DNA of 64,000 nucleotides from Sandaracinus sp. Its GTDB lineage: Bacteria > Myxococcota_A > Polyangia > Polyangiales > Houyiibacteriaceae. Location: assembly GCA_002699025.1 (NCBI GenBank), contig PABA01000089.1, positions 1 through 64,000 of the forward strand. Reading direction: 5' to 3'. Below the pieces are notes generated by a model. That model was not told the origin of the DNA, made no database searches, and saw only the letters and a program-made list of their open reading frames with translations. Numbering within the stretch: position 1 is the stretch's first letter; each line of letters starts with the position of its first letter. Made by a program: the position numbers and the translations under genes. This document shows positions 28,155-44,274 of the stretch, in pieces.

Positions 28155-28958
28155 TCAGCGCTCCCTCGCCGGCACGGGCGGCGGGCGGCTGTCGTCGTCC
28201 CAGCGGGTGCTGCGGAGGCGCGGGTCCGAGATGGCGGCGAGCTCGGCGCTGCCGAGGAGCTCCTGCGGGAGGCCCCAGGCGACGACCCGGTGCTCGAGGT
28301 AGAGGACGCGCTCGGCCGTGCGGGCGATGGTCTCCGGGTGGTGGCTGACGAGGATCGCGGCGAGCTCGTCGCTGCGCGAGACCTGGTAGAGCACCTCGAC
28401 GAGCTCGCGGCGGCCCATGACGTCGACGCCCGCCTCGGGCTCGTCGAGGATCAGGATCTTCGGCTCGGTGACGAGGGCGCGGGCGAGGAAGGCGCGCTGG
28501 GTCTCGCCGCCGCTCAGGTCGGCGAGGGACTTGCCCCAGAGGTGCTCGGCGCCGACGCGGGCGAGGGCGCGCTCGGTGGCCTCGCGCTCGGCGGCGCGGA
28601 GGCGGAGGGGCCACTTGCCGCGGAGGTTGGCGGCGACGAGCTCCTCGACCTTGGCCGGGAAGCGGCGGGCGAAGGACTTGCGCTGGGGGACGTAGCCGAG
28701 CACGCGGCTGTCCGGGAGCTGGGCGCCGGGGACGCGGACCGTGCCGGCGTCCGGCTCGAGGAGGCCGAGGCAGACCTTGAGAAGCGTGCTCTTGCCGGCG
28801 CCGTTGGGGCCCACGAGGCAGAGGAACTCGCCCTTCGGGATCCAGAAGGAGACGTCGTCGAGGACGGCGCGATCACCGAAGCGCTTGGTGACGCCGCGCA
28901 CCTCGAAGACGCACTCCTCCCGCTCGCGGTCGGGGTGCGTGTAGTGGGGGGCGCTCAT
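28155..28958 (-). CDS. znuC: Zinc ABC transporter ATPase (ZnuC-like)
   Basis: 267-residue ABC ATPase with all motifs: Walker A GPNGAGKST, Q-loop YVPQRKSF, signature LSGGETQR, Walker B ILILDEP, switch His in SHHPETIA. The C-terminal extension (SAELAAISDPRLRSTRWDD) is Pro/Asp-rich. It drives import with the permease and the ZnuA-like protein. Its stop and the permease start are 2 bases apart, and its start ATG overlaps the ZnuA stop by ATGA. Confidence 0.93.
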   Translation of the reverse strand: MSAPHYTHPDREREECVFEVRGVTKRFGDRAVLDDVSFWIPKGEFLCLVGPNGAGKSTLLKVCLGLLEPDAGTVRVPGAQLPDSRVLGYVPQRKSFARRFPAKVEELVAANLRGKWPLRLRAAEREATERALARVGAEHLWGKSLADLSGGETQRAFLARALVTEPKILILDEPEAGVDVMGRRELVEVLYQVSRSDELAAILVSHHPETIARTAERVLYLEHRVVAWGLPQELLGSAELAAISDPRLRSTRWDDDSRPPPVPARER

Positions 28959-30163
28959 CGGAGGGCGTCGTTCAGGACCGAGACGTCGTGGCGGAGCAGC
29001 GCCTCGTAGCTCTCCCGGCCCTCCGTGCCGCCCATGGGGTCGAGCTCGAAGAGGGGCGTGTGCGCCTGCTCGCTGATCACGCGGGCCGGGCGGGGGTCGA
29101 GCTGCGGCTCGTAGAAGAGAGCGGCGACGTCGGCGCCCCGGAGCGCGGCCAGCACGTCGGCGACGTAGCGGGGGGTCGGCTCGCGGCCCGGGAAGGGCTC
29201 GACGACGGCGGCGATGCGGAGGTCGTAGCGCTCGGCGAAGTATCCGAAGGAGCCGTGGAAGGTGACGATGGTGCGCTTCGTCCAGGCGCGGCTGGCGGCC
29301 AGGACCTCCTCGTGGAGGGCCTCGAGCTCGCGCTTCAGGGCCGCGCCGCGCTCGCGGAAAGCGTCGGCGCCGGCCGGGTCGAGCTCCGCGAAGGCGGCGA
29401 CGAGGAGGTCGACGGCCTCGACCATGCGGACCGGGTCGAGCCAGAAGTGGGGATCCTCGGCGCCGTGATGGTGGTGCGCCTCGCCGTGGCGCTCACTCTC
29501 CTCGTGCTCGTCCTCGTGCTCGTCCTCGTGCTCGTGCTCGTGCTGTTCCTCCGCCTCCGCGTGCTCCCCCCCCTCGTCGCCGTGCGCCTCCTCCGCGTGC
29601 TCCTCGTGGTCCTCGTGGTCCTCGTCGCCGTGCGCCTCCTCCTCGTGGTGCTCCCCCTCCTCGTGCTCGCCGGCCTCGTGACCCGCGTCGTCCCCGGGCG
29701 CCTCCTGCGAACGGGCGGCCCCCTCGAGGTCACCCACCTCGACCTGGGTCATCCGCCTCGGCTCGAGCTGCGGCCCGAGCTCGAGCCGCGCCACGTCCTC
29801 GCCCGCCGCGCTCTGCACGATCCGATGCAGCCAGTCATCGAGCTCGAGCCCCACCGACACCGCGAGGTCCGTCCCCGTCAGCCGCGCCACCTCCCGCGGG
29901 CTCGGGTCGTAGCTGTGCCCCCCACGCCCCGGCGGCAACACGCAGACCACCTCGAGCCGCTCGCCGGCGATGCGCCGCGCGACGTCGTAGAGAGGAAAGA
30001 TCGACACGGCGACCTTCGGCTCCTCGTCCGCGCCCCCCTCCTCGTCACCGCCACAGGCGGCGGCGGGGAGCACGAGAGCGCAGGCGAGCGCGATGGAGAG
30101 TGCACGGCCCACGCGGGGATGAAAGACCGCCGGCCCGATCCTCCGCAAGCCCGAAGCAAGCAC
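28955..30163 (-). CDS. znuA: Zinc-binding lipoprotein ZnuA with His/Glu-rich arm
   Basis: 402-residue metal-binding lipoprotein. Signal VGRALSIALACALVLPAAAC with lipobox Cys. ZnuA-type metal-site segments: VCVLPPGRGGHSYDPSPRE, ATFHGSFGYFAERY (VTFHGSFGYF), EPFPGREPTPRYVADVL and the terminal GGTEGRESYEALLRHDVSVLNDALR. A long His/Glu/Asp-rich insertion (about residues 155-235) including AHHHHGAEDPHF carries dozens of metal-ligand residues. It is lengthened against the ordinary ZnuA His loop. Its GTG start (30163) is uncertain; a later GTG gives a shorter leader. Confidence 0.92.
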   Translation of the reverse strand: MLASGLRRIGPAVFHPRVGRALSIALACALVLPAAACGGDEEGGADEEPKVAVSIFPLYDVARRIAGERLEVVCVLPPGRGGHSYDPSPREVARLTGTDLAVSVGLELDDWLHRIVQSAAGEDVARLELGPQLEPRRMTQVEVGDLEGAARSQEAPGDDAGHEAGEHEEGEHHEEEAHGDEDHEDHEEHAEEAHGDEGGEHAEAEEQHEHEHEDEHEDEHEESERHGEAHHHHGAEDPHFWLDPVRMVEAVDLLVAAFAELDPAGADAFRERGAALKRELEALHEEVLAASRAWTKRTIVTFHGSFGYFAERYDLRIAAVVEPFPGREPTPRYVADVLAALRGADVAALFYEPQLDPRPARVISEQAHTPLFELDPMGGTEGRESYEALLRHDVSVLNDALR

Positions 30164-34841: not shown

Positions 34842-35930
34842 ATGCGGAAGGCAGCCCCATCCACCGCGCTCTCCGCGGCCCTCGCCCTCGTCGTCTTCGC
34901 GACCGGCTCCTGCGCGAGCGGCCCCTCCGCGGAGCCCGCCCACGCCGGCGAGGCCCTCCCGCTGCCCGAGCTCTCCGCCCGCCGCCTCGGGGAGCTCCGC
35001 GCCCACGCCCCCGAGCTGGCCGAGCGGATCGTGCGCCTCCACCGGCTGGCGCGCGAGTACGCGGCCCGCGGCGAGCACGGCGCGGCGCAGGAGCTCGCGA
35101 CCCTCGCCGAGATGACGCTGGTCTCGGCGGGGCAGATGTCCGCGCGCCTGCTCGAGGCCGAGGCGACGGCCGAGCGCGCCGAGGCCGAGGTCGAAGCCGC
35201 CCGCGCCGCCGAGGCCCCGGCCGCGCCCCCGGCCGCGGCCGAGGAGCCCCCCGCCCGGGCCCGCCGCCCGGCCCGCCCGCGCCGCCGCCCGACGCCGCCC
35301 CCGGAGGAGACCCCGGAGCCGGTCGAGGCGGTCGATCCCTCCGCGGCTCTCAGCGCCCGCCTCGCCGCCCTCGCCGGCGCTCTGAGCGAGCTCGAGGCGG
35401 AGAGCGCCCAGGAGCGCGTCGCCGTGGACGCCGTGGAGACCGCCCTCATCGAGGCCGACCGGGCCCTCGCCGAGGGCCTCGTGGAGCGCGCCGGCCGCTT
35501 CGCCGACGAGGCCGAGCGCCAGCTCGCCGCCCTCACCGGCGCCGACGCCCCCGCGCCCCGCGCCGCCTCCGAGGCCAGCCTCACGGACGACGCCCGCCGC
35601 CGCCTCGGCGCCCGGGCGATCGTGCGCGGCTCCGTCGTCGCCGTCCGCCTCGACGACGTGCTCCGCTTCGACCGCGCCTGGGAGGCCGACGCCGCCTCGC
35701 CCCTCGGCCCGCTCCGCGTGCTCGTCCGCGGCTACCGGCACGTCCCCCTCTTCCTCGTCACCGTCGGCGAGCCGAGCCACGCCGCCTTCCGCGAGGAGCG
35801 CCGCTCCCTCGCCGCCTACCTCGTCGAGCGCTTCCAGATCCCCGGCGAGCGCCTCCGCTGGGCGCCCGACGCCGGCGCGCCCCTCGGCGCCGGCACCTAC
35901 CTCGTGCTGCGGGCCGCCGAGGGCGGATGA
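34842..35930 (+). CDS. OmpA-like lipoprotein preceding pgsB
   Basis: 362-residue lipoprotein: signal MRKAAPSTALSAALALVVFATGSC, then a helical Ala/Glu-rich region (residues about 60-125) with DUF4398-like repeats, a Pro/Arg/Ala linker, a second helical stretch, and a degenerate OmpA-like C-terminal domain (YLVERFQIPGERLRWAP...). Its stop overlaps the pgsB start (ATGA), so it is the first gene of the pgs operon and is a candidate outer-membrane component. ATG 34842 is preferred over the in-frame start at 34818 because it gives a clean signal peptide. Confidence 0.75.
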   Translation: MRKAAPSTALSAALALVVFATGSCASGPSAEPAHAGEALPLPELSARRLGELRAHAPELAERIVRLHRLAREYAARGEHGAAQELATLAEMTLVSAGQMSARLLEAEATAERAEAEVEAARAAEAPAAPPAAAEEPPARARRPARPRRRPTPPPEETPEPVEAVDPSAALSARLAALAGALSELEAESAQERVAVDAVETALIEADRALAEGLVERAGRFADEAERQLAALTGADAPAPRAASEASLTDDARRRLGARAIVRGSVVAVRLDDVLRFDRAWEADAASPLGPLRVLVRGYRHVPLFLVTVGEPSHAAFREERRSLAAYLVERFQIPGERLRWAPDAGAPLGAGTYLVLRAAEGG

Positions 35931-37183
35931 GCTACGCCGCCGAGCTCCTCACCGGCCTGGTCCTCTTCGTCGTCGCCTGGCTCGGGCACGAGGTCGTTCG
36001 CCATCGCCGCGCCCTCCGCCGCATCCCGGTGCGCGTCCACGTCAACGGCACCCGCGGCAAGAGCAGCGTCACGCGCCTCATCGCCGCGGGCCTCCGCGCC
36101 GGCGACAAGCGCGTCGTCGCCAAGACCACCGGCACGCTCGCCCGCGTGATCCTCCCCGGGGAGCGCGAGCTCGCCGTCTTCCGCCCCCTCGGCGCCAACG
36201 TGCGCGAGCAGATCCGCATCGTGCGCTTCGCCGCCGAGCAGAAGGCCGAGGTGCTCGTCGTCGAGTGCATGGCGCTCCAGCCGATCCTCCAGTGGCTCAG
36301 CGAGCGCATGTTCGTCCGCGCCACCCACGGCGTGATCACCAACGCGCGCCCCGACCACCTCGACGTGATGGGCCCGGGCGGGGACGACGTCGCCAAGGCC
36401 CTCTGCGGGATGATGCCCGTCGAGGCCGCCTGCTTCACGGCCGAGCGCGAGCGCCTGGCGATCCTCGAGATGGCCGCGAAGGATCGCGGCTCGCGCCTCG
36501 CGGCCATCGGCGAGGACGAGGTCGAGGCCATCCGGGACGCCGACATGGAGGGCTTCGTCCACTTCGAGCACCGCGAGAACGTCGCCCTCGCCCTCGCCGT
36601 CTGCGAGGACCTCGGCGTCCCGCGCGAGGTCGCGCTCCGCGGCATGTGGGAGGGCACGCCGGACCCGGGCGCGCTCGTCTTCCACCACCTCGACTTCTTC
36701 GGCCGCGAGCTCGTCTTCGTGAACGCCTTCGCCGCCAACGACCCCATCTCGAGCCAGCAGATCTGGGAGATGTGCGTCGAGCGCTTCCCCGAGCATCGGA
36801 GCGTCGCCGTCTTCAACTGCCGCGTCGACCGCGCCGACCGCTCGCGCCAGCTCGGCCAGGCTCTCCCCGCCTGGGCGCCGCCGGACCACGTCGTCGCCGT
36901 CGGCACGGGCACGCTCTTCTTCGGGCGCGCCGCCGCCGCCGCCGGCTGGGACGTGAGCCGCGTCGTGAACATCGAGGATCGCGACGCCCGCGAGGTCTTC
37001 GAGCGCCTCATCGAGCTCGCCGGCGAGCGCACGCTGATCGTCGGCCTCGGCAACATCGGCGGCCTCGGCCTCGATCTCGTGCGCCTCTTCCGCAACCGCG
37101 CCCGGCGCCGCCCGGCGCTCGCCCCCCTCCCCGACCGCGCCGCCCCGAGCGCGCCGACCCCCGCGCCCGCCGAGGATCTATGA
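35927..37183 (+). CDS. pgsB: Poly-gamma-glutamate synthase-like ligase PgsB/CapB
   Basis: 418-residue Mur-ligase-like ATP-dependent amide ligase. N-terminal transmembrane helix, then HVNGTRGKSSVTRLIAAGL with the ATP-binding GTRGKSS, VVECMALQPILQ, NARPDHLDVMG and VFNCRVDRADRS. It is the catalytic subunit that links glutamate (or similar) units in Bacillus-type gamma-PGA synthesis. It overlaps the previous and next genes by 4 bases each, so stoichiometric translation is likely. Confidence 0.93.
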   Translation: MSYAAELLTGLVLFVVAWLGHEVVRHRRALRRIPVRVHVNGTRGKSSVTRLIAAGLRAGDKRVVAKTTGTLARVILPGERELAVFRPLGANVREQIRIVRFAAEQKAEVLVVECMALQPILQWLSERMFVRATHGVITNARPDHLDVMGPGGDDVAKALCGMMPVEAACFTAERERLAILEMAAKDRGSRLAAIGEDEVEAIRDADMEGFVHFEHRENVALALAVCEDLGVPREVALRGMWEGTPDPGALVFHHLDFFGRELVFVNAFAANDPISSQQIWEMCVERFPEHRSVAVFNCRVDRADRSRQLGQALPAWAPPDHVVAVGTGTLFFGRAAAAAGWDVSRVVNIEDRDAREVFERLIELAGERTLIVGLGNIGGLGLDLVRLFRNRARRRPALAPLPDRAAPSAPTPAPAEDL

Positions 37184-37659
37184 GCCCGCCGGATCTCCTG
37201 GTCGTCTCCATCGCCATCGGCATCGTCGTCAGCTTCCTCTTCTCGGAGGTCTACGGCCTCGCCGCCGGCGGCGTCGTCGTGCCCGGCTACGTCGCCCTCT
37301 ACCTGAACCAGCCCTGGGCGCTCGCCCTCACCCTCGGCGTGGCCCTCGCGACCTTCGCCTTCACGAAGATCGTCTCGAGCTTCGTCATCATCTACGGGCG
37401 ACGGCGCACCTCGCTGACCATCCTCGTCGGCTTCGCCCTCGGCGCCTGGCTCGCCCGCGTCGACTTCCTGCCCGGGCTCTTCGACGCCGACGAGGGCGAC
37501 GTCACCGTCATCGGCTACATCATCCCCGGCCTCATCGCGATCTGGTTCGACCGCCAAGGCATCGCCCCGACCACCGCGTCGCTCGCCATCGCCGCCGCCG
37601 TCGTGCGCCTCGTCCTGCTCCTGGTGGTCGGCCCCCTCGCGCTCCAGGGGGCGCCATGA
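37180..37659 (+). CDS. pgsC: Poly-gamma-glutamate synthesis membrane protein PgsC/CapC
   Basis: 159-residue membrane protein with four or five helices: LLVVSIAIGIVVSFLFSEVYGLAAGGVVVPGYVALYLNQPW and the conserved EGDVTVIGYIIPGLIAIWFDRQG block of the CapC/PgsC family. It forms the membrane complex with PgsB. The start ATG overlaps the pgsB stop and its stop overlaps the next gene, both by ATGA. Confidence 0.93.
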   Translation: MSPPDLLVVSIAIGIVVSFLFSEVYGLAAGGVVVPGYVALYLNQPWALALTLGVALATFAFTKIVSSFVIIYGRRRTSLTILVGFALGAWLARVDFLPGLFDADEGDVTVIGYIIPGLIAIWFDRQGIAPTTASLAIAAAVVRLVLLLVVGPLALQGAP

Positions 37660-38795
37660 AGTCCCTCTACTGGCGCTCGAACACGGTCTCCACGCCGCAG
37701 CTCGTGGCCGTCGCCGCGCTCGCCATCGCCGGCCTGGTCGGCGTCGAGTCGAACCCGGTGGAGGAGCGCGACCCGCTCTTCGAGACCAAGCTCGAGGCCG
37801 CCCAGCTCGCCGAGCAGGCCTTCCGCGCCGTCTACCTCGAGCGCATCCGCCTGCGGATCCCCCTCGAGCCCGAGCTCGACCCGGCCGGGAGCGGGCTCAT
37901 CGGCCTGCCGCACTCGCCCATCGTCTCGAACGAGGGACACCTCACGTCCAAGCAGACGACGGCGAACCCGAACTTCGCGGCGGTCTTCGTGGAGATGCTC
38001 GCCGAAGCGGGCGTCGAGGAGGGAGACCTGGTCGCGCTGAACCTGACCGGCTCCTTCCCGGCGATGAACGTCGCCATGTACGCGGCCCTCGAGACGATCG
38101 GCGCCGAGCCCATCGTGATCAGCAGCGTGGCCGCCTCCGAGTATGGCGCGACGCACCCGGAGCTGACCTGGCTCGACATGGAGCGCGTGCTCTTCGAGCA
38201 GGACCTGGTGAGCTTCCAGAGCGTGGCCGCGTCCATGGGCGGCGTGCTCGACGTGGCGCGCAACCACAGCGAGGAGGGGCGGCGGCTCATCATGGAGGCG
38301 ATCGAGCGGAACGAGAAGCCGCTGCTCTCGCCGGGCGACTACGAGCAGGCCGTGCAGATGCGCCTCGACCTCTACGACGAGGTGCGCGGCGACCGGCCCA
38401 TCGCCGTCTTCGTGAACATCGGCGGCGGCACGGCCTCCGTGGGCACCTCGGACGACAAGCGCGACTTCCGCCCGGGGCTGAACACGCGCCTGCCCCGGGG
38501 CCTCGACCGCTCGTCCGTGATGCGCTCCTTCCTGCAGCGCGACGTGCCCGTGATCCACGTGAGCAAGATCCGCAGCATCGCGCGACGCTACGGGCTGCCG
38601 GACGCGCCGGTGGAGACGCCCGAGCCGGGCGAGGGGGGCGTCTTCCGCCACTCGGTGATCCGCACCTGGACCATCCTGGTGGTGCTCGTGCTGATCCTGC
38701 TCGCCATGTGGGGCGCGACCCGCTTCGACCTGGCCACGGTCTTCGGGCGGGGCGGCGGCAAGGCGGACAAGCCCAGCCCCGAGCAGATGGTCTGA
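37656..38795 (+). CDS. pgsW: Poly-gamma-glutamate system protein PgsW
   Basis: 379-residue protein with an N-terminal signal or anchor (VAVAALAIAGLVGVES) and a C-terminal helix (TWTILVVLVLILLAMWGATRFDL). It matches the poly-gamma-glutamate system family (PgsW) with LTSKQTTANPNFAAVFVEML, VALNLTGSFPAMNVAMYAALET and VFVNIGGGTASVG. Known members sit next to pgsBC in Gram-negatives. Overlaps pgsC by ATGA. A PgsA/CapA-type protein is not present in this operon. Confidence 0.9.
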   Translation: MKSLYWRSNTVSTPQLVAVAALAIAGLVGVESNPVEERDPLFETKLEAAQLAEQAFRAVYLERIRLRIPLEPELDPAGSGLIGLPHSPIVSNEGHLTSKQTTANPNFAAVFVEMLAEAGVEEGDLVALNLTGSFPAMNVAMYAALETIGAEPIVISSVAASEYGATHPELTWLDMERVLFEQDLVSFQSVAASMGGVLDVARNHSEEGRRLIMEAIERNEKPLLSPGDYEQAVQMRLDLYDEVRGDRPIAVFVNIGGGTASVGTSDDKRDFRPGLNTRLPRGLDRSSVMRSFLQRDVPVIHVSKIRSIARRYGLPDAPVETPEPGEGGVFRHSVIRTWTILVVLVLILLAMWGATRFDLATVFGRGGGKADKPSPEQMV

Positions 38796-38832: not shown

Positions 38833-38972
38833 TCCTCACCGGCCGGTCCTCACCGGCCGGTCCTCACCGGCCGGTCCTCACCGCCCGGTCCTCACTGCCC
38901 GGCCCTCACTGCCCGGTCCTCGCCGGCCAGTCCTCGCCGGTGGGTCTCGACCGGCCGCTCTCGACCGGCCGC
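38833..38972. repeat. 14-bp tandem repeat array
   Basis: Eight or so copies of TCCTCACCGGCCGG with drift to TCCTCACTGCCCGG and TCCTCGCCGGCCAG, then two CTCGACCGGCCGCT units. Lies just downstream of pgsW, between convergent genes (the SnoaL-like gene is on the minus strand). Can form many small hairpins via CCGGCCGG. Confidence 0.85.
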
Positions 38973-39117
38973 TCCGCGCACGGCCCTCGACGTCGGCCGC
39001 GCGCGGGAAGAACCGCGCCGCCCCGCCGGTCCATGGGCACGCGCTCGCCTCGAGGTACGAGCCGGCGTGGACCCACGGCGACGGGGAGGTCGGGCTCGGC
39101 GGACCCGAGCGCGGCGC

Positions 39118-42907: not shown

Positions 42908-43046
42908 CGGCGAGTGACGCTGCGGAGTGACACCGCGGAGTGACACCGCGGAGTGACGCCGGGCCGGCGCGGGCCCGGCGCGCCCCCACGACCCCCGCCC
43001 GCGAGTTGACCGGCCGCCACCCCGCGTGCTTCAACGCGGCACGGCC

Positions 43047-43811
43047 ATGAAGCACGTCTTCTTCGCGAGCCTCGTCAGCCTCCAGGACGCCGCCACGGGC
43101 GGCGCCGGCGCTGGCGGAGAGCACCAAGCCCTCGACCCCTGGGAGCTCATCCTCGAGGCCTCCCCGATCGTGAAGGCGGTGATGATCCTGCTGCTGCTCA
43201 TGTTCCTCGTGAGCAGCTTCATCACCGGCGCCAAGCTCGTCCGCCTCATGCAGGCGACGGGCAAGAGCCGGCGCTTCCTCGATCTCTTCTGGCAGGGCGA
43301 GGGGCCCGACTGGACCACCGAGCGCCTCGAGGAGCTCTACGCCCAGGTCCGCGCCTACGACGCCTCGCCGGTCGCCCAGGTCTTCCGCGCCGGCTACGTC
43401 GAGCTCGCCCGCGTCATGGGCTCGAGCACGCCCACGGACCAGGGCGACATCGACAACATCGAGCGCGCCCTGCGGCGCTCGGCCACCACCGAGCTCACGG
43501 CCATGGAGGCCATGCTCCCCTTCCTCGCGACGACCGGCTCGACGGCCCCCTTCATCGGCCTCTTCGGGACCGTCTGGGGCATCATGGACTCCTTCCTGAG
43601 CATCGGCGCCCAGGCGAGCGCGAGCCTCGACGTCGTCGCCCCGGGCATCGCCGAGGCGCTCATCGCGACCGCCATCGGCCTCGTCGCCGCCATCCCGGCG
43701 GTCGTCATGTACAACTTCTTCGTGCGGAAGATTCAGGTCCTCGAGAGCGAGCTGGACGCCTTCTCGAGCGACTACCTGAACATCGTGCGGCGCCACTTCC
43801 TGAGGACCTGA
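43047..43811 (+). CDS. tolQ: TolQ-type proton channel protein
   Basis: 254-residue TolQ/ExbB family protein with three helices (IVKAVMILLLLMFLVSSF; MLPFLATTGSTAPFIGLFGTVWGIMDSF; VAPGIAEALIATAIGLVAAIPAVVMYN). The GSTAPFIGLFGTVWGI block is the family signature. With TolR it forms the proton-motive-force-driven motor at the inner membrane. ATG 43047 (MKHVFF). First gene of the tol operon. Confidence 0.95.
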   Translation: MKHVFFASLVSLQDAATGGAGAGGEHQALDPWELILEASPIVKAVMILLLLMFLVSSFITGAKLVRLMQATGKSRRFLDLFWQGEGPDWTTERLEELYAQVRAYDASPVAQVFRAGYVELARVMGSSTPTDQGDIDNIERALRRSATTELTAMEAMLPFLATTGSTAPFIGLFGTVWGIMDSFLSIGAQASASLDVVAPGIAEALIATAIGLVAAIPAVVMYNFFVRKIQVLESELDAFSSDYLNIVRRHFLRT

Positions 43812-43812
43812 G

Positions 43813-44274
43813 ATGGGCATGTCGGGCGGCGGGGGCGGCGGCCGCGGCAAAGGGCGCGCCCCCCTCGGAGAGATCAACGTCACGCCGCTCGTCGACGTGA
43901 TGCTCGTGCTGCTGATCATCTTCATGGTCGCCGCGCCGATGCTCTCGACTGGCGTCGAGGTCGACCTCCCGCAGACCCGCGCGCCGCGCATGGAGATGGA
44001 CGAGGAGAAGCTCGTCCTGACCATCGACGAGGAGCGCCGGGTCTTCCTCGGCGAGGCCGAGGTCCCGCCGGAGCGGCTCGAGGAGGCCCTCCTCAACAAC
44101 GCGCGCGTGCAGGAGGACGACGAGATCTACGTCCGCGCCGACGCGAGCGTGGAATACGGCTTCGTCCTGCGGGTCTTCACGATCATCCGCCAAGCTGGCG
44201 TGGAGAAGCTGGGTCTGGTCACCGACCCGGCCGGCGGCGCGGCGCCCGCGCCCCAGGGGCAGCCGGACGAGTAG
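43813..44274 (+). CDS. tolR: TolR/ExbD-type protein
   Basis: 153-residue protein: one N-terminal helix INVTPLVDVMLVLLIIFMVAAPM with the essential Asp (VDVM), then a periplasmic domain (VEVDLPQTRAPRMEMDEEKLVLTIDEER). Starts 1 base after the TolQ stop, so the two are co-translated. A Gly/Arg-rich N-terminal tail precedes the helix. Together with TolQ it energises the TolA-like protein. Confidence 0.95.
   Translation: MGMSGGGGGGRGKGRAPLGEINVTPLVDVMLVLLIIFMVAAPMLSTGVEVDLPQTRAPRMEMDEEKLVLTIDEERRVFLGEAEVPPERLEEALLNNARVQEDDEIYVRADASVEYGFVLRVFTIIRQAGVEKLGLVTDPAGGAAPAPQGQPDE

What the first reader, a model, noticed from the sequence alone, without database searches (positions are those of the whole stretch)
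34842..38795. Four-gene overlapping operon lipoprotein-pgsB-pgsC-pgsW without PgsA
All four genes overlap by ATGA. PgsB and PgsC match the gamma-PGA ligase core. The first gene encodes an OmpA-like lipoprotein that could serve as the outer-membrane exporter or anchor, which Bacillus lacks. No CapA/PgsA is linked. This suggests a Gram-negative route for an anionic amino-acid polymer.
Basis: partly seen in the sequence, partly recalled or inferred. Interest (0 to 1): 0.55.

Follow-up and report, generated by a model that had tools for sequence, protein, structure and literature searches.

The report
Polyglutamate-type synthase operon with added lipoprotein
A myxobacterium carries a compact set of genes for making a polyglutamate-like polymer, in which the usual third Bacillus protein is replaced by an unrelated membrane protein and, in this branch only, a lipoprotein gene has been added.

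Summary
Four genes (34842-38795) are joined by three ATGA overlaps. PgsB, PgsC and PgsW pass their curated NCBIfam cut-offs. No CapA/PgsA is linked; two CapA-domain proteins lie on other contigs.

The core is not peculiar to this genome. 36 of 36 Myxococcota genomes with a PgsB above cut-off also have PgsW. 76 of 80 named loci, from at least seven phyla, are contiguous B-C-W, and none of the 80 flanks held shows a CapA homologue. 24 of 50 PgsW genomes have no CapA-domain protein anywhere. PgsW models confidently as a membrane-anchored alpha/beta domain without profile similarity to CapA.

The lipoprotein is real but local: 3 of 115 order genomes, all three directly upstream of pgsB, one clade. 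Its C-terminal domain probably has the OmpA fold, but the model has no barrel: an accessory or tether, hardly an exporter. In the same clade PgsW changed at otherwise near-invariant residues.

The polymer is inferred, not shown. New variant of a known kind.

The parts
34842..35930 (+). Lipoprotein gene, 362 aa: signal peptide with Cys24, helical regions (46-124 and 166-232), C-terminal OmpA-like domain (about 241-361)
   Evidence: homologues found only in two other genomes, both upstream of pgsB
35927..37183 (+). pgsB, 418 aa: Mur-ligase-type amide ligase with P-loop GTRGKS and one N-terminal membrane helix
37180..37659 (+). pgsC, 159 aa: membrane protein with five predicted helices
37656..38795 (+). 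pgsW, 379 aa: TIGR04332, membrane helix at each end (model helices 13-32 and 337-356) around an alpha/beta domain
35927..35930 (+). ATGA overlap lipoprotein/pgsB, also present in L068 and L069
37180..37183 (+). ATGA overlap pgsB/pgsC
37656..37659 (+). ATGA overlap pgsC/pgsW

Best explanation
This is a PgsBC-type polyglutamate synthase of the PgsW class. PgsB, a Mur-ligase relative held to the inner membrane by one helix, activates the end carboxylate of a growing chain with ATP and joins the next acidic amino acid, most likely glutamate. PgsC, with five membrane helices, works with PgsB and lets the chain out across the inner membrane. PgsW, held by a helix at each end, presents an alpha/beta domain to the periplasm and does there what PgsA does in Bacillus (helping, stereochemical selection, or release of the chain), with an unrelated fold. 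In this one clade a lipoprotein was added to the front of the operon. It is translated in coupling with PgsB and probably sits in the outer membrane facing the periplasm, holding or receiving the polymer or the synthase through its helices and OmpA-like domain. Shown: the gene set, its order, co-occurrence, absence of linked CapA, clade restriction, fold predictions. Inferred: substrate, polymer, topology of PgsW, role of PgsW, location and role of the lipoprotein.
For: Family scores above cut-off for all three core proteins. P-loop, and membrane helices as reported for Bacillus PgsB (one) and PgsC (five) (PMC6029982 Discussion). PgsB and PgsW co-occur in 36 of 36 phylum genomes with PgsB above cut-off (235 genomes searched); the one PgsW-only genome, G302, is cut at a contig end inside pgsW. 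76 of 80 named loci are contiguous B-C-W; three lack B and C because W lies at a contig end, one (L143) has B elsewhere nearby. No CapA homologue in the flanks of 80 loci (some flanks are short), with a control in which one own CapA finds the other at 1e-19. 24 of 50 PgsW genomes lack PF09587 entirely, among them Pan216 (complete), Lacipirellula limnantheis, and the nearest lipoprotein-bearing relative. PgsW and CapA profiles do not match (probability 0.2%). Lipoprotein: 3 of 115 genomes, 3 of 3 next to pgsB, ATGA kept, one clade with 100/100 support, and shared PgsW changes at positions conserved in 55-60 of 60 others.
Against: No polymer has been measured. 26 of 50 PgsW genomes, and this one, do have CapA-domain proteins elsewhere, so an unlinked PgsA cannot be excluded for them. 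In Francisella, whose capA carries the same product name as TIGR04332 (PMC5362203 table), no polyglutamate capsule is reported in the passages read and capB/capC are not needed for its O-antigen capsule (PMC4688374, PMC2897883, passages). The lipoprotein model is modest (pLDDT 75.5, pTM 0.41, three sequences). Three related sequences on a long branch could share changes by drift.
Confidence: 0.62

Rival explanations
1. The operon makes a different gamma-linked or mixed amide product (a short peptide, or acidic residues added to another envelope molecule) and not a polyglutamate coat. PgsB would be an amide ligase of another substrate, and the Bacillus-derived names would mislead.
For: PgsB is of the Mur-ligase/FolC family, which uses many substrates. 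A PgsB-like class inside much larger proteins exists in the same phylum. The Francisella locus has no shown polyglutamate product in the passages read.
Against: P0002 scores 421.5 bits in an equivalog model with cut-off 222.7, and PgsC is above cut-off too. PgsB and PgsC alone make polyglutamate in B. subtilis when over-expressed (PMC6029982).
Confidence: 0.25
2. The lipoprotein is the outer-membrane exporter or exit channel for the polymer.
For: Cys24 lipoprotein signal, constant linkage and overlap in its clade.
Against: No barrel in the model: helices and one OmpA-like alpha/beta domain. PgsBCW persists without it in 30 of 33 PgsW genomes of the order, and it was seen in only 2 of 80 named loci (some flanks are cut short).
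Confidence: 0.05
3. One of the two unlinked CapA-domain proteins (C188, C83) serves as PgsA here, and PgsW does something else, such as turnover or sensing.
For: Both proteins pass the PF09587 cut-off (194 and 133 bits against 27); C188 has an N-terminal hydrophobic stretch (sequence).
Against: PF09587 also rings in 7 of 14 control genomes, E. coli and Caulobacter among them, so it is not specific to polyglutamate. 24 of 50 PgsW genomes have none, including the closest lipoprotein-bearing relative.
Confidence: 0.12
4. The lipoprotein is a chance neighbour, read in the same transcript but with no part in the system.
For: Most PgsBCW operons lack it.
Against: 3 of 3 detected members lie directly upstream of pgsB with the same 4-base overlap across two families of the order, and no member was found elsewhere in 115 genomes, though only some first-look candidates were scored.
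Confidence: 0.15

Closest known systems
PgsBCA(E) / CapBCA(E) of Bacillus and Staphylococcus
   Same: PgsB and PgsC families, gene order B then C, one and five membrane helices
   Different: PgsA (PF09587) is absent from the locus; PgsW stands in third place; a lipoprotein gene precedes pgsB; PgsE was not searched for
NCBIfam TIGR04332 'poly-gamma-glutamate system protein'
   Same: P0004 scores 312.5 against a cut-off of 100; the family is already named for its link to this system
   Different: The clade of this window has its own residues at near-invariant positions and a linked lipoprotein
Francisella capBCA locus
   Same: Gram-negative three-gene locus with B and C; its capA bears the product name of TIGR04332 (PMC5362203 table), so it is probably a PgsW locus (inference, sequence not compared)
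   Different: No lipoprotein is mentioned in the passages read; it is studied as an attenuation locus and no polyglutamate is reported there
Fusobacterium nucleatum polyglutamate synthesis
   Same: Gram-negative polyglutamate producer (PMC3815933, passages read)
   Different: That review calls its genes homologous to the B. subtilis set; not compared here
OmpA-like periplasmic domains (PA0833, YiaD, MotB-like DVU_2228)
   Same: Predicted fold of lipoprotein residues about 241-361 (VIA Z 8.1, 7.8, 7.3)
   Different: No sequence-level match; Asp/Arg of the peptidoglycan site apparently not conserved

Membership tests
PgsB (TIGR04012) | Score above curated cut-off over the whole model | tested here: met
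   421.5 against 222.7 bits, positions 6-379 of 380
PgsB (TIGR04012) | P-loop of Mur-ligase middle domain and an N-terminal membrane helix | tested here: met
   GTRGKS in P0002, PF08245, helix 1-19
PgsB (TIGR04012) | ATP-dependent glutamate ligation | not testable with these tools
   needs an enzyme assay
PgsC (TIGR04011 / PF14102) | Score above cut-off and about five membrane helices | tested here: met
   120.5 against 96.45 and 113.2 against 27 bits; five helices
PgsW (TIGR04332) | Score above cut-off and linkage to PgsB/PgsC | tested here: met
   312.5 against 100 bits; B-C-W contiguous in 76 of 80 loci
PgsBCA system of Bacillus type | PgsA (PF09587) encoded in the operon | tested here: not met
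   No PF09587 on the window's contig; two copies on other contigs
PgsBCA system of Bacillus type | Poly-gamma-glutamate made | not testable with these tools
   needs polymer analysis
PgsA/CapA (PF09587) for PgsW itself | Profile similarity to the CapA domain | tested here: not met
   hhalign probability 0.2% against the own-genome CapA; no Pfam match
OmpA-like domain for the lipoprotein | Sequence match to the Pfam OmpA family | tested here: not met
   No Pfam match at E 1 for P0001 nor an OmpA match for its two homologues
OmpA-like domain for the lipoprotein | OmpA-like fold | tested here: inconclusive
   Favourable: Foldseek rank 1 PA0833 (prob 1.00, E 8.2e-3), rank 3 Legionella OmpA; VIA Z 8.1, 3.2 A over 105 residues; but the model is modest (pTM 0.41)
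OmpA-like domain for the lipoprotein | Conserved Asp and Arg of the peptidoglycan site (recalled) | tested here: inconclusive
   Likely positions read E/S/P (310) and R/R/Q (320) in three members; register set by eye, not by superposition
Bacterial lipoprotein | Signal peptide followed by Cys | tested here: met
   Hydrophobic 9-27 and Cys24 invariant in three members; the residue at -3 is not the usual Leu

The most novel reading that the evidence does not exclude
PgsW is a new periplasmic enzyme or chain-handling protein with no known structural relative. It has replaced PgsA across Gram-negative phyla, and in this Sandaracinaceae-related clade it was re-tuned together with a captured OmpA-like lipoprotein, giving a two-membrane machine that passes an acidic polyamide from synthase to outer membrane.
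Probability: 0.28. Interest if true: 0.68.

Novelty: new variant of a known kind. Interest (0 to 1): 0.42.

Why it matters
Polyglutamate is known mainly as a Gram-positive capsule and mucilage. If PgsBCW makes it, the polymer, or a relative of it, is spread over Myxococcota, Planctomycetota, Verrucomicrobiota and other two-membrane bacteria, and a search that asks for PgsA would miss it. The four-gene clade offers a handle on how such a polymer meets the outer membrane. PgsW is a conserved, structurally confident protein of unknown activity that could be assayed directly.

Tried and rejected

Direct protein search with P0001 over the order failed twice by machine error; I later used a three-row alignment, A4. 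There at most 17 candidates per genome were scored, out of up to 135 found, so distant unlinked homologues could be missed.

PgsW in viral contigs: 13 pattern matches, none a relative. PgsW fold: no PDB match with Foldseek E at or under 1e-3 and none in viral models. VIA best Z was 7.7 (parts of CoA ligases and dehydrogenases), within the range the tool calls common, so I name no relative. PDB sequence search with the PgsW profile gave only weak hits (E 0.45 and above). PDB hits of the lipoprotein profile (a designed protein, FabG) I take as composition artefacts of helices. PgsB against PDB: one weak FolC hit (E 0.29).

Recurrent neighbours other than B, C and W: only group-specific ones. Promoter and terminator scan and Rfam: nothing. 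The NCBIfam scan of the CapA proteins failed on one wrong coordinate and was not repeated; Pfam was used.

Papers: searches for 'PgsW', the TIGR numbers, and pgsB with myxobacteria found no paper on this operon; the library lacks most subscription journals.

One search is void: it read aligned copies and wrong CapA frames; redone. only wrote a helper file.
Full report
What is there. Third-position G+C is 97-98% in all four, as expected of genes in this DNA. The three core proteins pass their NCBIfam cut-offs: 421.5 bits against 222.7, 120.5 against 96.45, 312.5 against 100. The lipoprotein matches nothing in Pfam or NCBIfam.

CapA. Searched with PF09587, the genome has two matches, on contigs C188 and C83, neither on the window's contig C100. 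The domain is not specific: the same search rings in 7 of 14 control genomes, E. coli among them.

How general the core is. PgsW occurs in 18 of 33 genomes of the family, 33 of 115 of the order and 37 of 235 of the phylum. PgsB above cut-off occurs in 36 of the same 235; by comparing the two lists, all 36 also have PgsW. The one PgsW genome without PgsB, G302, is cut by a contig end inside pgsW. One scan of named genome contigs gave 169 relatives of PgsW, of which 80 were kept, from Myxococcota, Planctomycetota, Verrucomicrobiota, Lentisphaerota, Nitrospirota, Spirochaetota, Bdellovibrionota and candidate division WOR-3 (labels as printed). In 76 of 80 the order is B-C-W within a short stretch; L076, L093 and L097 hold W at a contig end and no B or C; in L143 B lies further on. 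Homologues of the two own CapA proteins are absent from the flanks held of all 80, some of which are short; as a control, each of the two finds the other at about 1e-19. Genome-wide, PF09587 is found in 26 of 50 PgsW genomes tested (50 of the 80 loci were given) and not in 24, which include the complete genome of Planctomycetes bacterium Pan216 (G131), Lacipirellula limnantheis (G135) and the nearest lipoprotein-bearing relative (G115). PgsW thus takes the third place of the operon, and the operon can exist in a genome without CapA.

PgsW. The model from 63 sequences is confident (mean pLDDT 91.4, pTM 0.86): helix 13-32, an alpha/beta domain from about 35 to 334, helix 337-356. Charges at both ends suggest that the domain is periplasmic (inference). 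It is not CapA by profile. Structure searches give no clear relative. Nine polar or aromatic residues (D75, K99, N106, S133, S161, W172, E176, D199, N254) are the same in 63 of 63 rows, as in an enzyme or a tight binding site; which of the two is open.

The lipoprotein. A profile of three members finds 3 of 115 order genomes: this one, G011 (same family; L068, Myxococcota IP29b_bin.34) and G073 (another family; L069, Sandaracinaceae ACE_MYX11). All three lie directly upstream of pgsB with the same ATGA. Of the 80 named loci only L068 and L069 show it. 30 of the 33 PgsW genomes of the order lack it. The three PgsW proteins form one clade with 100/100 support, on a stem of 1.31 changes per column against a median tip of 0.48 (63 rows, 18 of the 80 loci left out, mostly near copies or short ones). 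In that clade five positions held by 55-60 of 60 other sequences are changed in all three to one common residue: P8S, T90V, G129N, S131T, N166T; three more (128, 203, 237) are changed to mixed residues (threshold 85%). G129 and S131 lie beside invariant S133. This fits a shared shift of PgsW when the lipoprotein joined, but drift on a long branch is not excluded.

Fold of the lipoprotein. The model is modest (pLDDT 75.5, pTM 0.41). The C-terminal part matches OmpA-like domains: Foldseek rank 1 is PA0833 (probability 1.00, E 8.2e-3), rank 3 Legionella OmpA; IspF and other rows lower in that list are unrelated. With VIA, the seven rows of the 50 shown that start at residue 205 or later and run to the C-terminus are of the OmpA/MotB or Dot/Icm outer-membrane kind, the best being Z 8.1, rmsd 3.2 over 105 residues. 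The other rows fit helices only. There is no barrel. The Asp and Arg that bind peptidoglycan in OmpA (recalled) fall, by eye, on variable positions. So 'OmpA-like' is probably right, 'anchor' possible, 'exporter' unlikely.

Mechanism. In B. subtilis, PgsB and PgsC are both needed and, over-expressed, are enough for polyglutamate, with L-rich product when PgsA is missing; the same paper tells that others found PgsA essential (PMC6029982, abstract and Discussion). A review lists Fusobacterium nucleatum as a Gram-negative producer (PMC3815933, passages). I therefore read the locus as a synthase at the inner membrane with PgsW as its periplasmic partner, and the lipoprotein as a clade-specific receiver or tether. 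Product and roles are inferred.

Known or new. The three core families are named in NCBIfam, so the core is a known kind. Francisella capA bears the TIGR04332 product name in one paper's table (PMC5362203, passage), which suggests that the much-studied Francisella capBCA is a PgsW locus; there capB and capC are not needed for the O-antigen capsule, and the passages read report no polyglutamate (PMC4688374, PMC2897883). I found no paper on PgsW, its replacement of PgsA, or a lipoprotein-bearing form, within an open-licence library only. Verdict: new variant of a known kind.

Noticed in passing
G202:C235:14552-15532, G183:C4:517888-518925, G191:C110:76747-77823, G090:C153:3979-4986 (L151-L154): A second PgsB-like class in Myxococcota: 21 matches of 175-221 bits (below the PgsB cut-off) inside open frames of 755-3134 codons. 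Four were read: a long N-terminal region, then a PgsB-type domain with GGWGTRGKSG, then a C-terminal extension. L151 has no Pfam match.
   Followed up: partly
window 38833-38975: A G+C-rich tandem repeat of period 14 (10.2 copies, TCCTCACCGGCCGG) directly after pgsW.
   Followed up: no
G000:C188:67234-67965 (L001, L021) and G000:C83:15111-15860 (L002, L022): Two unlinked CapA-domain proteins of unknown role in the same genome; the C188 one lies beside a kinase-like gene (label recalled).
   Followed up: partly
window 28155-30163: An ABC-transporter ATPase next to a binding protein with a long His/Glu/Asp-rich stretch, as in zinc uptake (label recalled).
   Followed up: no
window 43026-44274: A pair that looks like ExbB/TolQ and ExbD/TolR (label recalled), an envelope module about 4 kb downstream of pgsW.
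   Followed up: no
Francisella capA (PMC5362203 table): Its product name is that of TIGR04332, so the Francisella capBCA locus may be a PgsBCW locus and not a true CapA one; sequence not compared.
   Followed up: partly
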